A stretch of DNA of 64,000 nt from the NCBI RefSeq assembly GCF_002158905.1, contig NZ_CP021431.1, forward strand, positions 3,736,001 to 3,800,000, written 5' to 3'. The notes under the pieces are model-generated. The model had not been told where the DNA came from. It saw only the letters and a program-made list of their open reading frames with translations, and made no database searches. Both the position numbers and the translations under genes were made by a program. Numbering within the stretch: the stretch's first letter is position 1; each line of letters starts with the position of its first letter. Below, one piece after another: positions 53,186 through 63,607 of this stretch. The stretch is from Yoonia vestfoldensis (GTDB lineage: Bacteria > Pseudomonadota > Alphaproteobacteria > Rhodobacterales > Rhodobacteraceae).

Positions 53186-54521
53186 CTAGTCGCGGGCATA
53201 GATATCTTCATAGCGGATGATATCATCCTCGCCCAGATAGCTGCCGGTTTGCACTTCGATCAGGACCACGGGCAGTTTGCCCGGATTTTCCAACCGGTGG
53301 GTTGATCCGAGCGGAATATAGATGGATTCGTTTTCGGTCAGCAGTTTCACCGTTCCGTCACAGGTGACCCGCGCGGTGCCCTGCACGACGATCCAATGTT
53401 CGGCGCGGTGGTGATGCGATTGCAGCGACAGCGCGGCACCCGCATCCACGACGATCCGCTTGACCTGAAACCGATCACCCGTGGCAAGGCTTTCGAACCA
53501 GCCCCAGGGGCGGTGATCCTTGGGAAAGCTTTCGGCCTGACAGGCACCCCGCGCTTTCAACAGCGCGACGGCCTGTTTGACGTCCTGCGTGCGGCTTTTG
53601 TGGCTGATCAGCACGGCATCGGGCATGGCGACGGCGATGATGTCCTGCAAGCCGATGCCGACGATCACCTGTCCGTCATTTTCGGACCGCAGCAGCGTAT
53701 CGGTGCAATCGATCGCATGGGCCGGACCGGATAGCGCCAGACCGTCGGTTTCGGTTTCGCGCCAGACCGCTGTCCAATCGCCCAGATCAGACCAGCGCCC
53801 CGCATATGGGGCCACGCTAAGGTTGTCGGCCTGTTCCATCACCGCGTAATCAATGGAAATCGCGGGCGCGCGGCCCCATGGTTCCGGCGCAAGCCGCAGA
53901 AATCCCAGATCATGGCTTGCGTCATCCACGGCTGTCTGCACCGCCTCGACCATATCGGGGGCATAGAGCGCATAGGCGGCCAGGATATCCTTGACGGTGA
54001 ACAAGAACAGGCCCGCGTTCCATAGATAGCGCCCCTCGGCCAGCATCTTGGCGGCGCGGGCGGCATCGGGCTTTTCGACGAAACTGACCAGCGGTGTGAT
54101 CTGCGGATCATCCTGGAGCGGGGCTGCGAGCTCAAGATAGCCATAGCCGGTCTCCGCCCGTTCGGGCGTGATGCCAAAAGCGACGATCTGCCCGGCCGCG
54201 GCGGCGGGAATGGCCGCGGCAACAATTTGGGCGAACAAGGCCGCATCGGGGATCACATGATCAGAGGGGGCGACCAGCATCAGCGCGTCAGGATCGCTCT
54301 GGGCCAGATGCAAGGCGGCGGCCAGAACGGCAGGGCCGGTATCGCGCGGGGCGGGTTCGATCAGCACGGCCTGCGGCGTGATGCCCATGGCTTGCATCTG
54401 TTGCACCGCGATGAACCGGAACTGGTCCGCCGTCACGACCAGCGGCGCCGCAAAGACATCGCCGCCCAGCCGGGTCAGGCTGGCTTGGAACAGGCTGCCC
54501 GTGCCTGCGAGCGCGGAAAAT
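53186..54521 (-). pseudogene. manC: manC: mannose-1-phosphate guanylyltransferase/mannose-6-phosphate isomerase, 5' end cut off by IS6 element
   Basis: The frame reads GMP-type nucleotidyltransferase (APSDHVIP, YGYLELA, FVEKPD, YLWNAGLFLF, SIDYAVME) and then the type II isomerase cupin (RPWGWFESLATGDRFQVKRIVV, HHHRAEHWIVVQGTARV). Full ManC proteins begin with a GGxGTRLWPLSR nucleotide-binding loop ending in PKQF; here the native sequence starts only at FSALAGTGSLFQ, so about 29 residues and the start are lost at the IS6 end. The frame stays open into the element, and an ATG inside its terminal repeat (54526) could start a 446-residue product lacking the guanylyltransferase loop, leaving only the isomerase domain. 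It precedes galE. Confidence 0.88.
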
Positions 54522-55330
54522 GGCATTGCCAAGTTGTTTGTGCTGCTCGACTTGGGTAGAGGTGCAGCATGCAAATCCCATCGTCCATGCCGCGCCTGAA
54601 GGGCTTTCGTTATCCGCGTGAGGTCGTTGCTTATGCGGTTTGGGCGTACCACCGCTTTGCCCTGAGCACGGCGGATGTGGAAGACCTGTTGGCGGAGCGC
54701 GGCGTGATTGTCAGCCGCGAAGCTATCCGCCTTTGGGTCAACCGGTTTGGCACGCATTTTGCGGGCTGTATCCGTCGGGATCGATTACGTCCGAACGACA
54801 AATGGCACATGGACGAGGTTGTGATCACGATCAATGGCGTGAAGCACTGGCTGTGGCGTGCGGTGGATGCCAACGGCGACACACTTGATATTCTTATGCA
54901 AACACGGCGCAATGCCAAAGCCGCAAAGCGCTTTCTGGCAAAGCTGATTGCTCAATTTGGCCAACCGAGGGTGATCATCACCGACAAACTGCGTAGCTAC
55001 ATCAAACCAATCGCACGCCAGGCACCGGGAGCCGATCACCGTGCCCACAAGGGGCTTAACAATCGAATAGAAGGCAGCCACAGGCCGACGCGGCGACGAG
55101 AGAAAATCATGGGCCGATTTAAATCGCCAAGACAAGCGCAACGTTTCCTTGCAGCCCATGACCAGATCAACACGATCTTCAAACCTCGCCGCTATCGCCT
55201 CACCGCTAACTCCTATCGTCATGCAAGGGCAGATGCGTTCAACCTCTGGGCCGACTATGCCCGCGAGATGACCGCCTGACGGGCTTGGCTCAGGTTGCAT
55301 TCGGTTCGGTAAAAATAACTTGGCAACGCC
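54522..55330 (+). mobile_element. Complete IS6-family insertion sequence (809 bp)
   Basis: Ends are 14-base terminal inverted repeats: GGCATTGCCAAGTT at 54522-54535 and, on the minus strand at 55330-55317, GGCGTTGCCAAGTT (one mismatch); similarity continues some bases inward. One transposase gene fills the interior. The flanking eight bases differ (CGGAAAAT on the left, TCTTTGTG on the right), so there is no target duplication. The element separates manC on its left from a broken IS91-type transposase gene on its right, as expected at one end of a replicative cointegrate or after a deletion between copies. Confidence 0.93.
54569..55279 (+). CDS. IS6-family transposase
   Basis: A 236-residue DDE transposase. 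The N-terminal helix-turn-helix part includes SREAIRLWVNRFG; the catalytic triad is Asp82 (KWHMDEV), Asp139 (VIITDKL) and Glu168 (NNRIEGSH). Length and motifs match IS6/IS26-type enzymes, which transpose by forming cointegrates. The gene lies within intact terminal repeats and shows no disruption, so it should be active. ATG 54569 follows an AGAGGTG ribosome-like site; ATG 54587 is possible. Confidence 0.95.
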   Translation: MQIPSSMPRLKGFRYPREVVAYAVWAYHRFALSTADVEDLLAERGVIVSREAIRLWVNRFGTHFAGCIRRDRLRPNDKWHMDEVVITINGVKHWLWRAVDANGDTLDILMQTRRNAKAAKRFLAKLIAQFGQPRVIITDKLRSYIKPIARQAPGADHRAHKGLNNRIEGSHRPTRRREKIMGRFKSPRQAQRFLAAHDQINTIFKPRRYRLTANSYRHARADAFNLWADYAREMTA

Positions 55331-56396
55331 TCTTTGTGGGTTTGGAACGTATCTCAGTTTGTTGCGTCAGGTTGGCCAGTAATGCTCTGCACACTGTGAG
55401 GCGGGCGGCGCGCTGTCCGTTGGCAAGGAAGCCGTAATGACGGATGCGATGAAAGCTATCGGGCACTGTATGAAGAAGAAAGCGGCGGATGAACTCTGCG
55501 GCATCAAGGGTCATCGTTCTGGGCCGGCGACCATGGCGATAGTCACGCCAGCGGAACGTCACCTTGCCATCTGCCATGCTGACCAGGCGTGAGTTGGCAA
55601 TGGCGACACGGTGGGTATACCGGCTCAGATACGCCAGCACTTGTACTGGCCCTCCGAAGGGTGGTTTGGCATAGACAACCCATTCTTGACGAGTGGCTTC
55701 TGTCAGAAGTTGGGTGAATGCCTGTGGGTCGGCGCGTTCAGCGATGTCACCGAAGAACTTTAGCTGCTCAGCCTCAAAAGCTGCGTGAAGCTCTTGAAGA
55801 AAAAGCCGGCGAAACACGCGTGACAGCACCCGGACCGGCAAAAAGAAGTTGGGGCGGCACGCGATCCAGCGCGTGCCATCAGGTGACTGGCCACCCCCCG
55901 GAACAATACAATGGAGGTGAGGATGATAACTCATGGTCTGACCCCAGCTATGCAGCACGGCAGTGAGACCGATCCTGGCTCCGAGATGTTTGGGATCGGC
56001 GGCTATGATGCGCAGCGTCTCGGCGGCTGTCCTGAACAGAATAGTGTAGACAACCTCTTTGTTCTGGAAGGCTATGGATGCAATCTCGGTGGGCAGTGTG
56101 AAGACTACGTGGAAATAAGGCACCGGCAGAAGGTCACCGGCCCGGGCCTCCAGCCAGTCGCGTGCGACCGCGCCCTGACACTTGGGGCAATGCCGGTTGC
56201 GGCAGGAATTATAGGCGACACGCACAACGCCGCAGGTCCGGCAGCCCTCGACATGGCCACCGAGCGCAGCCGTGCGGCACAGTTCGATCGCGGACATAAC
56301 GCGGCGCTCTACGCGCCCAAGGTGGCCGTCGTGAGCATGGATATAGGCAGGACCGTAGCGGCCGAAGACGTCCGCTATCTCCAAGGAGGGAGGCAT
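55331..56396 (-). pseudogene. IS91-family transposase, 3' end replaced by the IS6 element
   Basis: About 355 codons of an IS91/IS801-type rolling-circle transposase. Zinc finger CRTCGVVRVAYNSCRNRHCPKCQG (about 52-75), the Y2/HUH region with SYHPHLHCIVPGGG (HLH metal motif), and VLAYLSRYTHRVAIANSRLV are present. From 55330 leftward the frame runs into the IS6 end (stop near 55290), so the native C-terminus is gone. It starts 10 bases after the recombinase gene. It is probably inactive in this form. Confidence 0.88.
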
Positions 56397-56405
56397 AGCT
56401 CATCC

Positions 56406-57275
56406 TTAGCCGGGTGGCACTACCTCAAGGCTCAGCCGATCAAACGGGCTCTGCGTCTTCGCTATCGTTGTCGTGGCAACTTGCGTGTAGCGCGCAGTCG
56501 TCGATAGGTTGCTGTGTCCGAGCAGAACCTGAATGATGCGGATATCGACGCCGCTTTCAAGAAGATGGGTGGCGAAACTATGCCGCAAAGTGTGGACGCT
56601 CACCTTTTTGGTCAATCCCGCCGCCTTGGTTGCCGATCTACAGGCCGAGTGCAGCACCTGCACATCGATGGGCTTGTCGCCACGCCCAGGAAATAGCCAG
56701 TTCCGCGGTCGAGCCAGGCGCCAGTAGGTTCGCAAGATGCCGAGAAGCTGTGGCGAAAGCATGACCGTGCGGTCTTTGGCGCCTTTGCCATGACGGACCT
56801 GCAGCACCATACGATCACTGTCGATATCTGTGACCTTCAGACTGACCGCTTCCGAGGCGCGCAGCCCTGCGGCGTAGGCTGTCGTCAGTGCCGCACGCGC
56901 CTTCAGAGACGGCACCGCCTCGAGGAACCGCACAACTTCATCGGCGCTCAGGATCGTCGGCAACGTGCGCGGGGTTCGCGCGTAGGCGATCCGCTCGGGG
57001 ATCTCTGCCCGGTTCAACGTGACACCATAGAAAAAGCGCAACGCACAAACTGTCTGATTAAGCGCCGGCCACGAAATATCCTGCGCTACCAGATAGACCT
57101 GAAAGGCCCGAACATCTTCTAAACCGAGTTGATCTGGTGACCTATCAAAATACCGGCTGAATTTGGCAACAGCATGCAGATAGGATCGTTGTGTGGCCGG
57201 CGACAGGTTGCGAAGCGTCATGTCGTCGATCATACGGCGGCGCAGCGGGCTTACCGCTGATGTGGCATTTGCCAT
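56406..57275 (-). CDS. Tyrosine recombinase of an IS91-type element
   Basis: A 289-residue phage-integrase family protein. The N-terminal SAM-like core-binding domain (MTLRNLSPATQRSYLHAVAKFSRYF) precedes the catalytic domain with Arg in AYAAGLRASEAVSLK, Lys in HGKGAKDRTVML, HTLRHSFATHL (His-xx-Arg) and the nucleophile Tyr in LSTTARYTQV. A good AGGAGA ribosome site precedes ATG 57275. Its gene and the HUH transposase gene are read together; recombinases of this kind accompany IS91-like elements rather than acting as prophage integrases. Confidence 0.92.
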   Translation of the reverse strand: MANATSAVSPLRRRMIDDMTLRNLSPATQRSYLHAVAKFSRYFDRSPDQLGLEDVRAFQVYLVAQDISWPALNQTVCALRFFYGVTLNRAEIPERIAYARTPRTLPTILSADEVVRFLEAVPSLKARAALTTAYAAGLRASEAVSLKVTDIDSDRMVLQVRHGKGAKDRTVMLSPQLLGILRTYWRLARPRNWLFPGRGDKPIDVQVLHSACRSATKAAGLTKKVSVHTLRHSFATHLLESGVDIRIIQVLLGHSNLSTTARYTQVATTTIAKTQSPFDRLSLEVVPPG

Positions 57276-57429
57276 GGTTTGGTCTCCTGTTCAAAGGGTG
57301 GTCTCAGCAACCAAACCTATGCATCAGGAGGCCATTCCCGCCAATAGCAACGCCCATCCCGCGTCAGCGGGTTCGTTCAATCCCCGCGATTCAGGTTTTG
57401 GGCGTGACGCTTTAAGAAGGGGGTCCCCG

Positions 57430-57751: not shown

Positions 57752-58168
57752 CTACTTCAGCCGATCAACAATCGATGCCCCGCCCGACCTGGCAAGCGCG
57801 ATCAGGCTGGACTGGATTTTGGATGTGAAGACGGAACTGAACGTGCCGATGGGCGTGCGGTCCTCCCAGACATAGGACCGCTCCAGAATATCGGTGTTGA
57901 TCTCGTCCAGCATGACCCATTTGCGGACATGGGTCTCCAACCCCACACGCTGCGACTCGATCTGTGGCACCTCAATGCACTTGCGCGAGGGCAAAGGCGG
58001 TCGCGTCGTGATCGGCAGGATGAACACCACGGTCTCTGTATCGGACTTGGCGACAGTGACGGCGATGCAGACAGGCCGTGTCTTGCGGCCCTCTGTCTCG
58101 CCCGCCATCTGTTCGCGTTTCCATAGGAACGGGTAGCGGAAAACCTCTCCCGCGCTCGGCTTAGTCAT
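57752..58168 (-). CDS. PemK/MazF-like toxin
   Basis: A 138-residue protein beginning GEVFRYPFLWKREQMAGETEGRKTRPVCIAVTV, the pattern of a PemK/MazF-type fold (first strands and the KxRP loop), with VFILPITT as the next strand and KWVMLDEINTD near 85-95. Such toxins cleave mRNA in most cases. It overlaps the end of the Phd-like antitoxin gene by eight bases and is therefore produced from the same transcript. It is a plasmid-maintenance module next to the replicon. Confidence 0.8.
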   Translation of the reverse strand: MTKPSAGEVFRYPFLWKREQMAGETEGRKTRPVCIAVTVAKSDTETVVFILPITTRPPLPSRKCIEVPQIESQRVGLETHVRKWVMLDEINTDILERSYVWEDRTPIGTFSSVFTSKIQSSLIALARSGGASIVDRLK

Positions 58169-58415
58169 CAGCCTGCGTCAAGTCCCGCTCGAGCCCCTCT
58201 ATCATCAGCGCCTTGAGATCCTCGGGCATCTCGTCAACCATATGAGCCTGTTGCGTGGCCCCCCGCGCGAGCTGCTGGTACTGGTCCATGCTCATCAGCA
58301 CGAATTTCGGCTTACGATGTTTGGTGATCGCAATCGGCGACCGAATAGCCGCGTCAAACAGGTCACTTGTGTGCCGCGTCAGGTCGGCCGCCTTGAACTC
58401 GGGAAGCTCATGCAT
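58161..58415 (-). CDS. Phd/YefM-type antitoxin
   Basis: An 84-residue antitoxin. The N-terminal DNA-binding part (PEFKAADLTRHTSDLFDAAIRSPIAITKHRKPKFVLMSMDQYQQLA) is the Phd/YefM fold with the typical KPKFVLMS strand; the acidic tail (MVDEMPEDLKALMIEGLERDL) would neutralise the toxin. ATG 58415 has GGAG upstream; ATG 58430 is an alternative without one. Its operator is the palindrome at 58434-58466. The pairing of a Phd antitoxin with a PemK-like toxin is a mixed module. Confidence 0.85.
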   Translation of the reverse strand: MHELPEFKAADLTRHTSDLFDAAIRSPIAITKHRKPKFVLMSMDQYQQLARGATQQAHMVDEMPEDLKALMIEGLERDLTQADD

Positions 58416-58433
58416 GATCTGGGTCTCCATTTG

Positions 58434-58466
58434 TGCAGAATATACATACATTCTGGATATTCTGCA
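58434..58466 (-). promoter_or_regulatory. Palindromic operator of the Phd-PemK operon
   Basis: Perfect 10-base arms TGCAGAATAT (58434-58443) and ATATTCTGCA (58457-58466) are separated by 13 bases. The palindrome ends 19 bases before the antitoxin start at 58415 and covers likely -10/-35 positions, as expected for autoregulation by the antitoxin-toxin complex. Confidence 0.7.
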
Positions 58467-58492
58467 AGAGATGGGTTGAGCACTCCCATGTG

Positions 58493-58915
58493 TCATCCGT
58501 ACCACCGCACGGTCTCAGTGTAGGTGTACTCATAGGCGGTGTTGCCGTTCTCGAAGGACTCGTCCGAAGTCAGGTGGTCGTAGCCGCGATAGGCTACCAG
58601 CGCGCCGTAGCGGTCGAACGTGACGAACGCCCCTGCCCGTCCGATGTCTGTCGGATTGAAGGCTATCGGCCGGATCTCGATCTTTTGGACCTCTGCTTCC
58701 AACACGCCAAGCTGCGTATCGATCTCGGGGGGGTCATGTTGTCTAGCGTACTCTTTTTCCAAGGCCTGATACTCGGAGAGTAGTTTGGTATAGGTCGCTT
58801 CTTCATCCGTCACCAGCCAATCGAGCAGCATTGTGCCACCCTCAGCGTTATAAGCATTAACACAGACAAAGACGGCGGTAAGGTTGGCCACCTGGGCCGA
58901 GGCGTCTGTGAACAT
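58493..58915 (-). pseudogene. Fragment of a plasmid ParB-like protein
   Basis: An open frame of 140 codons. Its central part (DEEATYTKLLSEYQALEKEYARQHDPPEIDTQLGVLEAEVQKIEIRPIAFNPTDIGRAGAFVTFDRYGALVAYRGY, about 37-113) matches in pattern the middle coiled coil and RPxxYDPxxIARAGAFVS...RGYVRP segment of the ~600-700-residue ParB-like proteins of alphaproteobacterial plasmids. Both the DNA-binding ParB start and the long C-terminus are absent, and the sequence after RGY diverges. It is most likely a decayed remnant. Identification rests on my memory of the family pattern. Confidence 0.5.
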
Positions 58916-59234: not shown

Positions 59235-59915
59235 TTAAATGACAAGCGCAATATCCGACACATCCGGATCTACCGCTTGGCATGCTGCCAAAACATGTTT
59301 TGCGAGATGCGTCTGAACATAATTGCAATGAAACCGGCTTGGCGCCTTTAGCGTAAGCCGCCCCCCTGCCCTATCGACACGTGCAAGACTGCGTAACCAG
59401 CTGGCATATTTATCCGGCATTTCGGTATAAAGAATAGCCTGCGCTAGCGCCCATTCGGTCCCCGAACTGGTATCGGGTGGCGGCAATGTGCCCTTGATCG
59501 GCAATGGCACCACTTCTGGTGTTTCCGGCTGGCCGGTCATCCGCAGGTCAAAGTCAGGTCCGACGTTGCACCAATTCTCTTGCGTCATTTCCAGAATGCG
59601 GTCGATGTTCAGGCCATATTCCGTGACCCGCCCGCGTGCGCCCTGCCGTTTTACGACGAGCCACCCCAGCCCACGCAGCTTTGCCATTTCACGTTTCACA
59701 GTACGTTCGTCGACAGTCCAAAGCCTGGCAATTTCGCGCTGACCGACAGCCAGATCGTCGCGGGCCCAGTTGTAACGTGCAGTGACTAAGGTAATCAGCC
59801 GTAGCACCAAACGTTGGTCATGTTTATTACGGGCCAAAGCGTAAGCGCCCAAGGCCGTGATGATATCATATTTTTGCGCTGCATCGCGTTGGCGCGCAGG
59901 TTTGACAATGTGCAT
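59235..59915 (-). CDS. DnaA-like plasmid replication initiator
   Basis: A 226-residue protein. A winged-helix part around 55-110 (AVGQREIARLWTVDERTVKREMAKLRGLGWLVVKRQGARGRVTEYGL) is followed by a linker and a C-terminal domain (about 148-226: GTEWALAQAILYTEMPDKYASWLRSLARVDRAGGRLTLKAPSRFHCNYVQTHLAKHVLAACQ) that resembles DnaA domain I. This matches the DnaA-like replicases described for Rhodobacterales plasmids, which pair with repA/repB-type partition genes. Here the gene is divergent from repA across a 523-base AT-rich region. It is the best evidence that the right part of the window is a plasmid replicon. Confidence 0.8.
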   Translation of the reverse strand: MHIVKPARQRDAAQKYDIITALGAYALARNKHDQRLVLRLITLVTARYNWARDDLAVGQREIARLWTVDERTVKREMAKLRGLGWLVVKRQGARGRVTEYGLNIDRILEMTQENWCNVGPDFDLRMTGQPETPEVVPLPIKGTLPPPDTSSGTEWALAQAILYTEMPDKYASWLRSLARVDRAGGRLTLKAPSRFHCNYVQTHLAKHVLAACQAVDPDVSDIALVI

Positions 59916-60438
59916 GACTGCCCTCTACTGCGCAGATCGCGCAGCTTTACTATACCTCTTGGTCAGATCTCTTGATGGATCATAAGGAGCGGTGAAAAAC
60001 GAAAACGCCTTTCCGTCCTGTTCCCTAATTTGCGTCCAACAATGCGATTCTGTCAAGGGCCTGTTTCGAGGGTGTCATCCAAACGCCTTCATTTAAAATA
60101 GATTTTCCGGTATATAGGTATAAGGGGGCAGCTTGTACGTCCCCTATATGACAGTTTTTGTCCCCCAATACTTAGCGATTGTTGATATGGTGTCCCGCTA
60201 TATCGTGGATCATGGCGTATGCATTGATCGCCTTATTGCGCGGGAAAAGCGCCAGGGCCCGCGATTCGAAGGGCCAACATGTCAGAGCTCTCCAAGATGG
60301 AAAAATTCACTTTCTTTCTCGTGTAGTTTCGGCGTAAATCAGGAAAGAAGAATAATTAACGTTTGATTTGTCCTCTGGCATTGGTTCCCCGCGGGGAACC
60401 ATCGCAAGGCAACAAGCATCAATGACCGGAGTCCGTTT
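59916..60438. other. Candidate replication origin / rep-repA promoter region
   Basis: The 523-base region between the divergent initiator and repA genes is AT-rich compared with its surroundings. GTCCC motifs start at 60139, 60160 and 60192, 21 and 32 bases apart (two and three helical turns), followed by AT-rich TATAT or AATA; they could be iterons bound by the initiator. A nearby GGGGGCA (60124-60130) gives an inverted partner. It ends with a parS-type palindrome at 60383-60400. No canonical DnaA box was found by eye. Confidence 0.45.
60384..60399. promoter_or_regulatory. parS-type palindrome 1 (upstream of repA)
   Basis: GTTCCCCGCGGGGAAC is a perfect 16-base palindrome that fits the GTTNNNNGCNNNNAAC parS pattern of RepAB-type partition systems; flanking G and C extend it to 18 bases. 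It lies 40 bases before the repA start. Confidence 0.8.
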
Positions 60439-61734
60439 ATGTATACACACGAAGATCTGGCAAAGCTGCAGGCGCAGTCGCTTAAGATGCAGGGGTTTAT
60501 CCGGCAACAAACCTATTCCCCCGAGATGGAGAAAACCTTGCGTCGGTTTTCAAGCTGGGAAGTGGCAGAGCTGATCCTCAAGATCAATCCGTCCACGTTC
60601 CGCGGGCGGCTGGCCGCAGACCCTTCCCTTCCCGAAGGTCTGGTCGAAGAAGACGGCCGTCAGCGCTGGTATACATTGGAAGAGATCAATGAACTCCGCC
60701 GTAAGGTAAAGATCAAGGGCATGTCCTTGATGCCGCCCCGTCAAGCAGGCAAACGAGCGATTCGCGCGGCGATTGCGAATTTTAAAGGCGGTGCCGGTAA
60801 ATCTACCGTCGCGCTGCATTTCGCCCATGCCGCTGCGCTGAACGGCTATCGCGTGCTGGCCGTCGATTTTGATCCGCAAGCCACGTTAAGTCATTCCATG
60901 GGTTTGTCCGATGTATCCGAAGAGGTGACGGTTTGGGGCATCATGGCCCGCGACCTTATCCGTGAAACCGAACGGATGAATGCCGCCGCTGCCGGTGCCG
61001 AAAGCGGGACCGCCCTGCCCCAGCGCAAATTGCCCGCCGCCGTTACCGGCATGGGCCTGAACGAATTGCGCGTCACGGATTTCATTAAATCCACCAGCTG
61101 GCCGACTATCGACATTATCCCAAGCTGCGCCAACGCCGCCTTTGTCGAATTTGCCAGCGCCCAGTACCGGCACCTGAACCCCGAATGGTCGTTCTTTGCG
61201 GCGGTGTCGCGATACCTCGACCAGATCCCGCCGGATGCTTATGACCTGATCATTTTCGATTGCCCGCCTGCGATCGGCTATCAGTCGATGAATGCGGTTT
61301 TTGCGGCCGATGTGCTGTATGTGCCATCTGGTCCTGGCTATTGGGAATATGACAGCACCACCAGTTTCATCGGCCAGCTGTCCGAAGCGCTAGAGGATCT
61401 TGGCCGTTTTCGTGGGCGCCTGCCGTCGGGCACTAACCCTGAAAAGGTATTTGCAGCTATTCGTTTCCTACTGACGCGTTTTGAACCGAACAATGACCTA
61501 CACCGCGCGATGCAAAAAGCATTTGAGCAGGTGTTCAAGTCACATGTCACCGCAAACCCGATTGAAATGACCCGCGCGGTAGAACAATCAGGCCGGTTCC
61601 TGTCGTCGATCTATGAAATGGATTACCGGCAGATGACTCGCGAAACATGGCGTCGTGCGCGGATGTCATTTGATCGTGCCTATGACGAATTTCAGGCCAC
61701 ATTGGTCGACGCATGGGACAAGCTGGAGGACTGA
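60439..61734 (+). CDS. repA: Plasmid partitioning protein RepA (ParA-type ATPase)
   Basis: A 431-residue ParA-type ATPase that moves plasmid copies apart and represses its own operon. The N-terminal winged-helix part (about 1-100, with MEKTLRRFSSWEVAELI and QRWYTLEEINELR) is that of the RepA class. The deviant Walker A is NFKGGAGKST, Walker A' VLAVDFDPQATLS, and Walker B DLIIFDCPPAIGY. A GGAG lies upstream of ATG 60439, and a parS-type palindrome lies between it and the origin region. repB starts three bases after its stop. Confidence 0.95.
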   Translation: MYTHEDLAKLQAQSLKMQGFIRQQTYSPEMEKTLRRFSSWEVAELILKINPSTFRGRLAADPSLPEGLVEEDGRQRWYTLEEINELRRKVKIKGMSLMPPRQAGKRAIRAAIANFKGGAGKSTVALHFAHAAALNGYRVLAVDFDPQATLSHSMGLSDVSEEVTVWGIMARDLIRETERMNAAAAGAESGTALPQRKLPAAVTGMGLNELRVTDFIKSTSWPTIDIIPSCANAAFVEFASAQYRHLNPEWSFFAAVSRYLDQIPPDAYDLIIFDCPPAIGYQSMNAVFAADVLYVPSGPGYWEYDSTTSFIGQLSEALEDLGRFRGRLPSGTNPEKVFAAIRFLLTRFEPNNDLHRAMQKAFEQVFKSHVTANPIEMTRAVEQSGRFLSSIYEMDYRQMTRETWRRARMSFDRAYDEFQATLVDAWDKLED

Positions 61735-61737
61735 TGA

Positions 61738-62859
61738 ATGGTTAAGAAGCGCTCCGTCTTCGATATCAATTTTGAACCCGAAGACAATGAAGAGTTCCCC
61801 GCGGGGAACCCGTCACCGATGGAAACAAAATCTTCCAACGTGCAAGGCCATCCGTTTCAAAACCGCGAAGCCGTTCCTGCGCGACGTGGGCCGATGGCCA
61901 GTGCGATTGCAGAGACCGCCGATGCAACGGCTGAGCGTGCTTCGGCAGAGGCAGCGATCCGCGCGGAAAACGATGCTTTGGCGCATGAACATGTGCGTCT
62001 GAAAAAGCTGGGGTTGATTACCGATCTGATCAAAACCTCTGATGTGCTGATGACAAAGCTGACGCGCGACAGGTCCGCCAATGCTGATCCTGATCTGGCA
62101 GAACTGAAGGAATCGATCAAATCGGTCGGCCTGTCGAACCCGATCCGTGTTGAACAGACCGCCGATGGTTTCGAGCTTATTCAGGGGTATAGACGCCTGA
62201 CGGCTTTTATCCAATTGGCAGAGGAAACCGGCGATCCACGGTATACGCGGATCCCGGCAGCGATGGTTCCCCGCGGGGAACCGCTGGTCACATTGTATCG
62301 CAAGATGGTCGACGAAAACCTGATCCGCAAAGATCTGTCATTTGGTGAAATGGCCCAGCTCGCGCTGTCCTATGCGCGGGATGAGGGCGTGTCATCGGGT
62401 GATGCTGTATCAACGCTTTATGCCTCTGCGCTCAAGCAGAAGCGCACCTACATCCGGCAATTCGCCCGCGTTCTTGAAGCGTTGGATGGTGCGGTGCGTC
62501 ACCCCGAAGCGATACCGCGCGCCTTGGGTCTGGACCTTTACAAGATGATCGAGGTAGAGCCGGACCGCAGGACAAGCATCATCGCGGCGTTGCGTGAACT
62601 GCCTGATCGGGATGCGGATAAAGAAGTGCAAATGTTGCGCGACAGCTTTGCTGCCCTCAAAAAGCCAAGACGACAGATGCCCCCTAAAACGGTCTCCAAG
62701 ACCTCGCTCCGGCTGGGTCGCCCCGAAGGCGAGGTACGTGTGACTGCGTCGGACGGCAAGATCGAGCTACGACTGAACAGGGATTTTTCTGCAATCTCTC
62801 GGTCAAGACTTCAGGAAGGGATTGAGGCGCTTTTGACGTCATTGGACAAGGACTCCTAG
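61738..62859 (+). CDS. repB: Plasmid partitioning protein RepB (ParB-type)
   Basis: A 373-residue centromere-binding protein. An N-terminal ~95-residue region (disordered, with the FDINFEPEDNEEFPAGNPSP start) is followed by the ParB nuclease-like fold with DLAELKESIKSVGLSNPIRVEQTADGFELIQGYRRLTAF, the NLIRKDLSFGEMAQLAL helix-turn-helix region (about 200-230), and a C-terminal basic part. Two parS-type palindromes lie within its coding sequence. It is translated directly after repA (three-base gap) and is probably coupled to it. Confidence 0.93.
   Translation: MVKKRSVFDINFEPEDNEEFPAGNPSPMETKSSNVQGHPFQNREAVPARRGPMASAIAETADATAERASAEAAIRAENDALAHEHVRLKKLGLITDLIKTSDVLMTKLTRDRSANADPDLAELKESIKSVGLSNPIRVEQTADGFELIQGYRRLTAFIQLAEETGDPRYTRIPAAMVPRGEPLVTLYRKMVDENLIRKDLSFGEMAQLALSYARDEGVSSGDAVSTLYASALKQKRTYIRQFARVLEALDGAVRHPEAIPRALGLDLYKMIEVEPDRRTSIIAALRELPDRDADKEVQMLRDSFAALKKPRRQMPPKTVSKTSLRLGRPEGEVRVTASDGKIELRLNRDFSAISRSRLQEGIEALLTSLDKDS
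61794..61809. promoter_or_regulatory. parS-type palindrome 2 (inside repB)
   Basis: The same GTTCCCCGCGGGGAAC 16-mer as at 60384, here 56 bases into repB, encoding part of the FPAGNP segment. Being identical to the upstream site outside the gene, it is likely a functional binding site and not a chance result of coding. Confidence 0.75.
62266..62281. promoter_or_regulatory. parS-type palindrome 3 (inside repB)
   Basis: A third GTTCCCCGCGGGGAAC, with the same G/C extension (62265-62282), in the middle of repB where it encodes VPRGEP. Confidence 0.75.
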
Positions 62860-62933
62860 GGCTCTGGCGGGCTTGGGGCAGGGTAGGGGCGTTGTGCGTC
62901 TTCTTGACTCCGTCACCTTCACGCTTTAAATGT

Positions 62934-62963: not shown

Positions 62964-63206
62964 ATGTGGACCGTTCAGGATGCGAAGAACAAGTTCAGTG
63001 CGGTGGTTGATGCCGCGTTGGCAGGGACCCCGCAAGAGGTGACGCGCCGTGGCAAGCCTGCGGTTGTTGTGCTGTCTGCCGATGAATATCATAGACTTGT
63101 TGAAGGGGCTGTGAAGGCGCGGGGAAGCTTTGCAGAGCATTTGATGGCATTTCCCGGGGGCGATTTCCCACGGGCATCTGCCACCCTGCGTGATGTAAGC
63201 TTTTGA
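62964..63206 (+). CDS. Phd/YefM-type antitoxin (second system)
   Basis: An 80-residue antitoxin with a Phd/YefM fold: VQDAKNKFSAVVDAALAGTPQEVTRRGKPAVVVLSADEYHRLV. The tail (GSFAEHLMAFPGGDF) would bind the toxin. ATG 62964 has AGGA upstream; ATG 62955 would add three residues. The stop overlaps the PIN toxin start by one base (TGATG). The CTAGCTAG repeats lie directly before the gene. Confidence 0.9.
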   Translation: MWTVQDAKNKFSAVVDAALAGTPQEVTRRGKPAVVVLSADEYHRLVEGAVKARGSFAEHLMAFPGGDFPRASATLRDVSF

Positions 63207-63607
63207 TGTACATACTCGACACGAACGTCATCTCGGCCGTGCGTCGTCCGGACCGCGCACCCAAGGTAGCCGCCTGGTTGCGAGGCAAGGCAGAACAGGA
63301 CCTCTTCCTGAGTGTTGTGACATTGGGCGAAATTGAGCGTGGCATTCGCCAGCAGGAAGCCCGGGACCCCGGGTTTGCGCAGGATCTTCGGTCTTGGCTT
63401 GATCAGACTATCATGCTGTTCTCGGATCGGTTGCTTTCTTTCCAGGCCGAGGATGCCCGCATCTGGGGCCGGCTTTCGGCCGAGATAGGTCACACTGGCG
63501 CGGATCTAATGATTGCTGCGTCGGCGCTACGCCACGGCGCGATTGTTGTTACGGGGAATGTGAGTGACTTTGCGCCAACAGGGGCTGCGGTCGAAGATCC
63601 GTTCTGA
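63206..63607 (+). CDS. PIN domain toxin (VapC/FitB-like)
   Basis: A 133-residue PIN-domain ribonuclease. The acidic metal residues are visible: Asp5 in ILDTNVISAV, Glu in TLGEIERGI, and the Asp pair in GADLMIAASAL and VTGNVSDFAP. The FitB-type LDTNVISAVRRP start is typical. It is translated with the antitoxin gene upstream. ATG 63206 is the start; the TTG one codon earlier is not needed. Target RNA is unknown. Confidence 0.93.
   Translation: MYILDTNVISAVRRPDRAPKVAAWLRGKAEQDLFLSVVTLGEIERGIRQQEARDPGFAQDLRSWLDQTIMLFSDRLLSFQAEDARIWGRLSAEIGHTGADLMIAASALRHGAIVVTGNVSDFAPTGAAVEDPF

What the first reader, a model, noticed from the sequence alone, without database searches (positions are those of the whole stretch)
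54200..57300. Chromosome-plasmid junction: IS6 element inside manC looks like one end of a cointegrate
Left of 54522 the genes are of chromosomal type (mutL, purH, rsmB, rpoE, galE). Right of 55330 are a plasmid initiator, repA/repB with parS, toxin-antitoxin systems and recombinases. The IS6 copy is intact but the flanking eight bases (CGGAAAAT / TCTTTGTG) differ, and both neighbours, manC and an IS91-type transposase, are cut exactly at its ends. IS6 enzymes make cointegrates, which would fuse a plasmid into manC and leave a second IS6 copy at the other end. Alternative: a single IS followed by a deletion, or the window lies on a megaplasmid that also carries housekeeping genes.
Basis: partly seen in the sequence, partly recalled or inferred. 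Interest (0 to 1): 0.85.

Follow-up and report, generated by a model that had tools for sequence, protein, structure and literature searches.

The report
Plasmid fused into chromosome by IS6

Summary
Confirmed, and the other end found. The IS6 element (809 bp, window 54522-55330) has one other copy in the genome: 100% identical, same orientation, at C1:136844-137652. C1 (3,836,950 bp) reads as a circle, because a secretion-ATPase ORF (VirB11 type) runs across its ends. Between the copies lie 182,463 bp with a DnaA-like initiator, RepA/RepB, relaxase, type IV secretion and vitamin genes. Outside lie manC without its first 28 codons and fcl without its last 27. In G016, the relative closest by fcl, these genes are adjacent on one chromosomal contig; about 176 bp found there is missing here. 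The second copy is thus followed by fcl', not by CGGAAAAT and the manC 5' end as predicted. The fused structure is what the assembly shows; the route is inferred: IS6 cointegration plus a small deletion, or fusion at two resident IS copies. IS6 cointegration and plasmid integration are known kinds of event. Notable is the cargo: the genome's only detected ThiC and NadA genes, each found in 3 of 56 genomes of the genus, own included.

The parts
53186..54521 (-). manC remnant (mannose-1-phosphate guanylyltransferase / mannose-6-phosphate isomerase), 5' end missing (28 codons relative to G016); outer chromosomal flank
   Evidence: Pfam NTP_transferase and MannoseP_isomer; comparison with G016
54522..55330 (+). 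IS6-family insertion sequence, 809 bp, left junction copy; identical copy at C1:136844-137652
54569..55279 (+). IS6-family transposase, 236 aa, DDE residues kept
54522..54535 (+). left terminal inverted repeat GGCATTGCCAAGTT
55317..55330 (+). right terminal inverted repeat AACTTGGCAACGCC
55331..56396 (-). IS91-type (Y2) transposase, 3' end cut at or near the IS6 edge; first gene of the integrated plasmid
   Evidence: Pfam Y2_Tnp and Zn_Tnp_IS91; two full-length relatives of 393 aa
56406..57275 (-). tyrosine recombinase that accompanies the IS91-type transposase
   Evidence: Pfam Phage_integrase; same pair on named plasmids
58161..58505 (-). Phd/YefM-type antitoxin
   Evidence: Pfam PF02604
59235..59915 (-). 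DnaA-like plasmid replication initiator, 226 aa
   Evidence: Pfam DnaA_N; homologue in 289 of 72,556 PLSDB plasmids, 80% identical to that of NZ_CP084953.1, which PMC9025767 lists as pDSM14862_b, DnaA-like-I
60439..61734 (+). RepA/ParA-type partition ATPase
   Evidence: RepA model below its cut-off; homologue at E 1e-40 in 28 of 56 genomes of the genus, own included
61738..62859 (+). RepB/ParB-type partition protein
   Evidence: matches below the curated cut-offs
63203..63607 (+). PIN-domain protein, possibly a VapC-type toxin (name recalled)
   Evidence: Pfam PIN

Best explanation
A DnaA-like-type plasmid of about 183 kb with conjugation genes, carrying one copy of an IS6 element, was fused into the chromosome within the fcl-manC gene pair by IS6-mediated cointegration. 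The element is now at both ends in direct orientation. About 176 bp of chromosome (the last 27 codons and stop of fcl, an 8-bp spacer and the first 28 codons of manC, counted on G016) was lost in the same or a later event, most simply an adjacent deletion started by the second copy, which also removed one half of the 8-bp target duplication. Shown in the assembly: two identical direct copies; plasmid-type genes between them; a reading frame that closes C1; collinear chromosome outside; the missing 176 bp. Inferred: that the plasmid brought the IS, that the route was copy-in plus adjacent deletion, and that recombination between the copies can still release a circle of about 183,272 bp.
For: Two copies only in the genome, 100% identical, same strand. 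A secretion-ATPase frame (T2SSE; the part lying in the start of C1 was scanned) continues across the contig ends. The segment is 182,463 bp at 57.2% GC. Plasmid functions: DnaA-like initiator, RepA/RepB types, VirB4, VirB8 (two), VirB9, VirB10 and VirD4 types, secretin and secretion ATPase, a 3,063-aa protein with a MobA/MobL relaxase domain. One alignment from initiator to RepB (about 3.6 kb, window 59235-62862) is found in 80 of 94 RepA-bearing loci from relatives, one of them titled as a plasmid, pLokhon02. Left flank (10.2 kb, 86%) and right flank (7.9 kb, 91%) are collinear on one contig of G016 with a gap of about 176 bp. fcl lies directly before manC in 18 of 22 same-genus loci and in a second pair in the same genome; in G005 that pair lies in the same chromosomal context. 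The 190-bp G016 query that spans the lost stretch finds nothing in the genome; 11 of 11 neighbouring 190-bp pieces of G016 match the remnants at E below 1e-40 in a local test. In the other 55 genus genomes no match to this IS longer than 500 bp exceeds 72% identity (9 candidates scored per genome), so it probably came with the plasmid.
Against: No 8-bp duplication at the outer (CGGAAAAT / CTTGGGGG) or inner (TCTTTGTG / ATCCGTAC) flanks, so at least one extra event is needed, and the inner mismatch needs a further rearrangement on the plasmid. In 5 of 5 relatives of this IS on named plasmids the 8-bp flanks also differ, so this is weak evidence either way. No free copy of this plasmid was found: its VirB4 is in no other of 56 genus genomes at E 1e-30, and 20 kb around the transfer genes has no megablast match in PLSDB. 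A RepA homologue is not always on a plasmid-sized contig: in G005 a partial one (residues 56-429) lies on a 337-kb contig that also carries the fcl-manC chromosomal region. Reads were not available.
Confidence: 0.85

Rival explanations
1. Fusion at two resident copies. The chromosome already held one IS6 between the damaged fcl and manC, the plasmid held another, and the two molecules joined by the transposase's targeted conservative reaction or by homologous recombination. No new duplication is expected.
For: Explains the absence of target duplications without a deletion after fusion. For IS26 the conservative reaction is over 50 times more frequent than copy-in when both molecules carry the IS (PMC6952201, Introduction).
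Against: Needs more steps: IS26 itself moves only by forming cointegrates (PMC6952201), and the 176-bp loss must still be explained. No third copy exists, and none of the 18 uninterrupted same-genus fcl-manC loci has room for an IS between the genes.
Confidence: 0.35
2. Assembly artefact: a chromosome with one IS and a separate plasmid with one IS were wrongly joined at the 809-bp repeat.
For: Such a misjoin would give the same flanks as fusion at two resident copies. A search for 16S genes, meant to show that longer repeats were bridged, returned nothing; its control rang in 9 of 14 genomes, so it is inconclusive.
Against: The assembly has 3 contigs (3,836,950, 111,030 and 39,380 bp) and resolves an exact 1,326-bp inverted repeat inside this segment, longer than the IS. 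C1 starts inside the plasmid segment and closes over a reading frame.
Confidence: 0.08
3. No plasmid fusion: a lone IS followed by a deletion, or the window lies on a megaplasmid that carries housekeeping genes.
Against: A second copy exists with fcl' behind it. C1 is 3.84 Mb, carries dnaA, and its flanks are collinear with the 3.06-Mb contig of G016.
Confidence: 0.01

Closest known systems
Chromosomal integration of a 280-kb plasmid in Sulfitobacter pontiacus CB2047 (PMC13386836; passages and section 10 seen)
   Same: Same bacterial order; a large plasmid with partition and toxin-antitoxin genes inside the main chromosome.
   Different: There the flanking repeats are rrn operons, homologous recombination is proposed and Nanopore reads span both junctions; here the repeats are IS6 copies, two genes are cut, and no reads were available.
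IS26/IS257/IS1216 cointegrates, copy-in and targeted conservative routes (PMC6952201: abstract, outline and Introduction seen; review PMC7986276 and PMC9602291: passages seen)
   Same: Fused molecules bounded by directly oriented IS copies; deletion beside the IS is a known product of the replicative route within one molecule.
   Different: This IS has 28 residues between the second D and the E of its transposase; I did not place it in a clade, and neither route has been tested for it here.
Paracoccus aminophilus chromid pAMI5 (PMC3925955; abstract passages and other passages seen)
   Same: dnaA-like replicon that carries the genome's only nadABC and also pantothenate-synthesis genes.
   Different: pAMI5 is a free, essential replicon; here the replicon is part of the chromosome and also carries conjugation, thiamine, biotin-synthase and PABA genes.
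DnaA-like-I plasmids of Rhodobacterales, e.g. pDSM14862_b (PMC9025767; passages and a table seen)
   Same: Initiator 80% identical, with a RepA/RepB-type pair beside the initiator in the related loci.
   Different: Free replicons; the table lists pDSM14862_b without a T4SS.
Chromosomally integrated IncHI2 plasmid in Salmonella (PMC9019673; search listing only)
   Same: A plasmid integrated in a chromosome.
   Different: Resistance plasmid in an enteric host; I did not read how it integrated.

Membership tests
IS6-family insertion sequence | Single transposase ORF of the IS6 family with DDE triad | tested here: met
   NF033587 219 bits against cut-off 125; D82, D139, E168 conserved in five relatives
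IS6-family insertion sequence | Short terminal inverted repeats, element about 0.8 kb | tested here: met
   809 bp; 23-nt arms 83% complementary, five bases of each lying outside the IS; same left terminus in five named copies
IS6 copy-in cointegrate | Two directly oriented identical IS copies at the ends of the fused molecule | tested here: met
IS6 copy-in cointegrate | 8-bp target duplication at the outer flanks | tested here: not met
   CGGAAAAT against CTTGGGGG; about 176 bp lost between them
IS6 targeted conservative fusion | No new duplication; each molecule held an IS beforehand | tested here: inconclusive
   No duplication; no plasmid-free sister with the chromosomal IS among the relatives examined
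Integrated plasmid | Own initiator, partition and transfer genes between the junctions | tested here: met
Integrated plasmid | Collinear chromosome outside the junctions in a relative without the plasmid | tested here: met
   G016, 18 kb collinear with a gap of about 176 bp; RepA query has no match at E 1e-40 in G016
Integrated plasmid | Junctions seen on single long reads | not testable with these tools
   no reads available
DnaA-like-I replicon | Initiator homologous to a typed DnaA-like-I replicase, beside a parAB-type pair | tested here: met
   80% identity to pDSM14862_b, typed DnaA-like-I; RepA/RepB types
DnaA-like-I replicon | Places in group I rather than group II in a phylogeny of replicases | not tested
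   no tree was made

The most novel reading that the evidence does not exclude
A natural Hfr-like, reversible state. A plasmid with conjugation genes, carrying B-vitamin and NAD synthesis genes rare in its genus, has become part of the chromosome between two direct IS6 copies. Recombination could release it again as a circle, and its relaxase could move chromosomal genes from this point, so vitamin self-sufficiency would be fixed or shed by an IS6 switch.
Probability: 0.2. Interest if true: 0.65.

Novelty: new member of a known kind. Interest (0 to 1): 0.45.

Why it matters
It is a clean case of a plasmid entering a chromosome at an IS6 element outside the resistance-plasmid setting in which these elements are mostly studied, and both junctions can be compared with an uninterrupted relative. 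The segment holds the only ThiC and NadA genes detected in the genome; in the genus each is present in 3 of 56 genomes, own included. Acquisition and chromosomal fixation of vitamin synthesis through a plasmid is thus open to direct test in this strain.

Tried and rejected
Rejected: lone IS plus deletion, and megaplasmid. A remnant of the missing manC/fcl ends elsewhere in the genome: none found (which scored 40 of 43 candidates and itself warns that an empty answer without a known positive shows nothing; my sensitivity control was local, against the two remnants only). The idea that the two inner flanks are halves of one interrupted IS91 element: the other inner flank does not resemble the DNA around the IS91 transposase in two relatives and has no PLSDB match at the sensitivity used. 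A free version of the plasmid: none seen (in PLSDB the 5000 VirB4 records counted are all below 60% identity, the best listed at 32%). 16S search to judge the assembly: empty and inconclusive. tRNA scan of the ten loci L005-L014: none.

Literature: searches (15 of 20 papers listed; 15 of 62; 1 of 1; 4 of 4; 8 of 22) showed no title or abstract that reports this integration or a vitamin cluster on an IS6-integrated plasmid in Rhodobacterales. That says nothing about unlisted papers or papers not held.

Full report
What was checked. The window is bases 3,736,001-3,800,000 of contig C1 (3,836,950 bp) of a three-contig genome; the other contigs are 111,030 and 39,380 bp.

The element. The IS runs from 54522 to 55330 (809 bp). 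Its transposase (236 aa) is an IS6-family protein with D82, D139 and E168 conserved in five relatives on named plasmids. Flanks are CGGAAAAT on the manC side and TCTTTGTG on the plasmid side. In none of those five relatives do the two 8-bp flanks match (3 compared by script, 2 read by eye from the sequence printed). A missing duplication is therefore common in this subgroup and says little about the route.

The other end. The same 809 bp occurs once more in the genome, at C1:136844-137652, identical and on the same strand. Its left flank is ATCCGTAC and its right flank CTTGGGGG, followed by fcl (GDP-fucose synthase; name from the sequence and neighbours) lacking its 3' end, and then gmd. The region between the copies crosses the ends of contig C1. 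A reading frame runs through that point without a stop, and its part in C1 is a type II/IV secretion ATPase (Pfam T2SSE) beside other VirB-type genes, so I take it as virB11 and C1 as circular. The segment is then 182,463 bp.

The chromosome outside. In G016 (fcl 89% identical at protein level, the best of the 60 genomes apart from the own genome) fcl is followed directly by manC on a 3.06-Mb contig. About ten kilobases to the left of the window's IS and eight to the right of the second copy are collinear on that contig, with a gap of about 176 bp. On G016 this equals 27 codons and the stop of fcl, 8 bp of spacer and 28 codons of manC (175 bp if base 54521 is counted as manC). One search found fcl at E 1e-60 in 26 of the 35 other same-genus genomes it searched. 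Loci of 22 of these were at hand: in 18 of the 22 manC starts at the corresponding distance (161-181 nt between the cut points), in 4 no manC was found within the stretch held. In G005 the uninterrupted pair sits in the same chromosomal context as here. The genome has a second, uninterrupted fcl-manC pair at C1:1,597,027-1,599,447 (66% and 59% identical), which may be why the loss was tolerated (inference). The lost stretch was not found elsewhere in the genome; 11 of 11 control pieces of G016 of the same length match the remnants.

The plasmid inside. The window part holds a DnaA-like initiator (59235-59915) and RepA/RepB-type partition genes (60439-62859). The initiator has homologues in 289 of 72,556 PLSDB plasmids; the two best are 80% identical, one of them on NZ_CP084953.1, listed as pDSM14862_b and DnaA-like-I in PMC9025767 (passages and table). 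Of 94 RepA-bearing loci from relatives (14 from unnamed genus genomes with short flanks, 80 from the named-genome scan, which kept the best 80 of more), 80 hold one alignment from initiator to RepB. The RepA homologues of the 14 genus genomes lie on contigs of 3.8-337 kb. The 337-kb one, in G005, is a chromosomal contig: it also carries fcl-manC and the genes around it, and its RepA match is partial, with no initiator seen. So a RepA relative alone does not prove a free plasmid.

Further in are a secretin and a secretion ATPase, VirB4, VirB8 (two), VirB9/CagX, VirB10/TrbI and VirD4 types, and a 3,063-aa protein with an N-terminal MobA/MobL relaxase domain and helicase-type AAA domains. A simple ORF caller listed 177 ORFs of 90 aa or more, some of them surely spurious; 68 proteins of the segment were scanned against Pfam, several without a match, and the rest are not annotated here.

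The cargo. The segment carries thiC, a thiO-like oxidase, thiG, thiE, thiF, thiD; nadA, nadB, nadC; panB, panC; bioB and bioY; pabB; queC, queD, queE; and copper-type efflux genes (gene names follow the profile matches and gene order). ThiC is found once in this genome, on the segment, and in 3 of 56 genomes of the genus, own included. NadA likewise. Whether the other 53 genomes belong to auxotrophs is not shown, since salvage and other routes exist and several genomes are incomplete. Vitamin genes on plasmids are not new: NadB has matches at E 1e-100 in 47 PLSDB plasmids, and nadABC sit on the essential chromid pAMI5 of Paracoccus aminophilus (PMC3925955, passages).

How it probably arose. 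IS26 fuses two molecules, leaving the IS at both ends in direct orientation and an 8-bp duplication outside (PMC6952201, Introduction). Within one molecule the replicative reaction deletes DNA next to the IS (PMC7986276 and PMC9602291, passages). That this IS behaves like IS26 is an inference from family membership. One fusion into fcl-manC and one 176-bp adjacent deletion give what is seen. The rival, fusion at two resident IS copies by the conservative or homologous route, also gives what is seen but needs an earlier IS insertion and deletion at the same place. With two copies in the genome and no long match above 72% identity in the other genomes of the genus, I favour the first, at roughly 55 to 35. 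The inner flanks (TCTTTGTG / ATCCGTAC) also differ, so the plasmid's own IS site had been rearranged before or afterwards.

Assembly. No reads were available. An exact 1,326-bp inverted repeat inside the segment is resolved in the contig, which makes a wrong join at an 809-bp repeat less likely but does not exclude it.

Verdict. The event is of a known kind: large-plasmid integration has been reported in a related bacterium through rrn operons (PMC13386836), and IS6-family cointegrates are well studied. The cargo and the two-sided comparison with an uninterrupted relative make it a useful case.

Noticed in passing
C1:60,411-86,000 (L010:411-20000 and L011:1-5673): Cluster of B-vitamin and cofactor genes on the integrated plasmid: thiC/O/G/E/F/D, nadA/B/C, panB/C, bioB, bioY, pabB, queC/D/E; ThiC and NadA are each found in only 3 of 56 genomes of the genus, own included.
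   Followed up: partly
C1:18,285-27,476 (L175:685-9876, minus strand): Very large protein (3,063 aa): MobA/MobL relaxase domain at the N-terminus followed by helicase-type AAA domains.
   Followed up: partly
L190 (G005:C11:322,809-323,933): In relative G005 a partial RepA homologue (74% identical, residues 56-429) without a detected initiator lies on a chromosomal contig about 84 kb from the uninterrupted fcl-manC pair: possibly the relic of another plasmid integration near the same place, or the end of a contig that joins a plasmid.
   Followed up: partly
L014:12679-13839 and neighbours: Gene with a weak match (below cut-off) to the shufflon N-terminal region near a secretin and secretion ATPase, suggesting a thin conjugative pilus; no shufflon recombination sites were looked for.
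   Followed up: no
C1:1,597,027-1,599,447 (L048): Second, uninterrupted fcl-manC pair, 66% and 59% identical to the broken one.
   Followed up: yes
C1:111,123-112,448 and 125,061-126,386: Exact 1,326-bp inverted repeat in the plasmid segment; the first copy has two transposase-type ORFs (HTH_Tnp_1; HTH_21 and rve; IS3-like, name recalled). It could invert the region between the copies.
   Followed up: partly
C1:135,393-136,404 (L005:15393-16404): Another ParA/VirC1-like ATPase with a small partner gene close to the second IS6 copy; a further VirC1-like ATPase lies at C1:29,017-29,793. The plasmid may itself be a fusion of replicons.
   Followed up: no
C1:1,135,048-1,136,847: A second, distant VirB4 relative (32% identical) elsewhere on the chromosome.
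   Followed up: no
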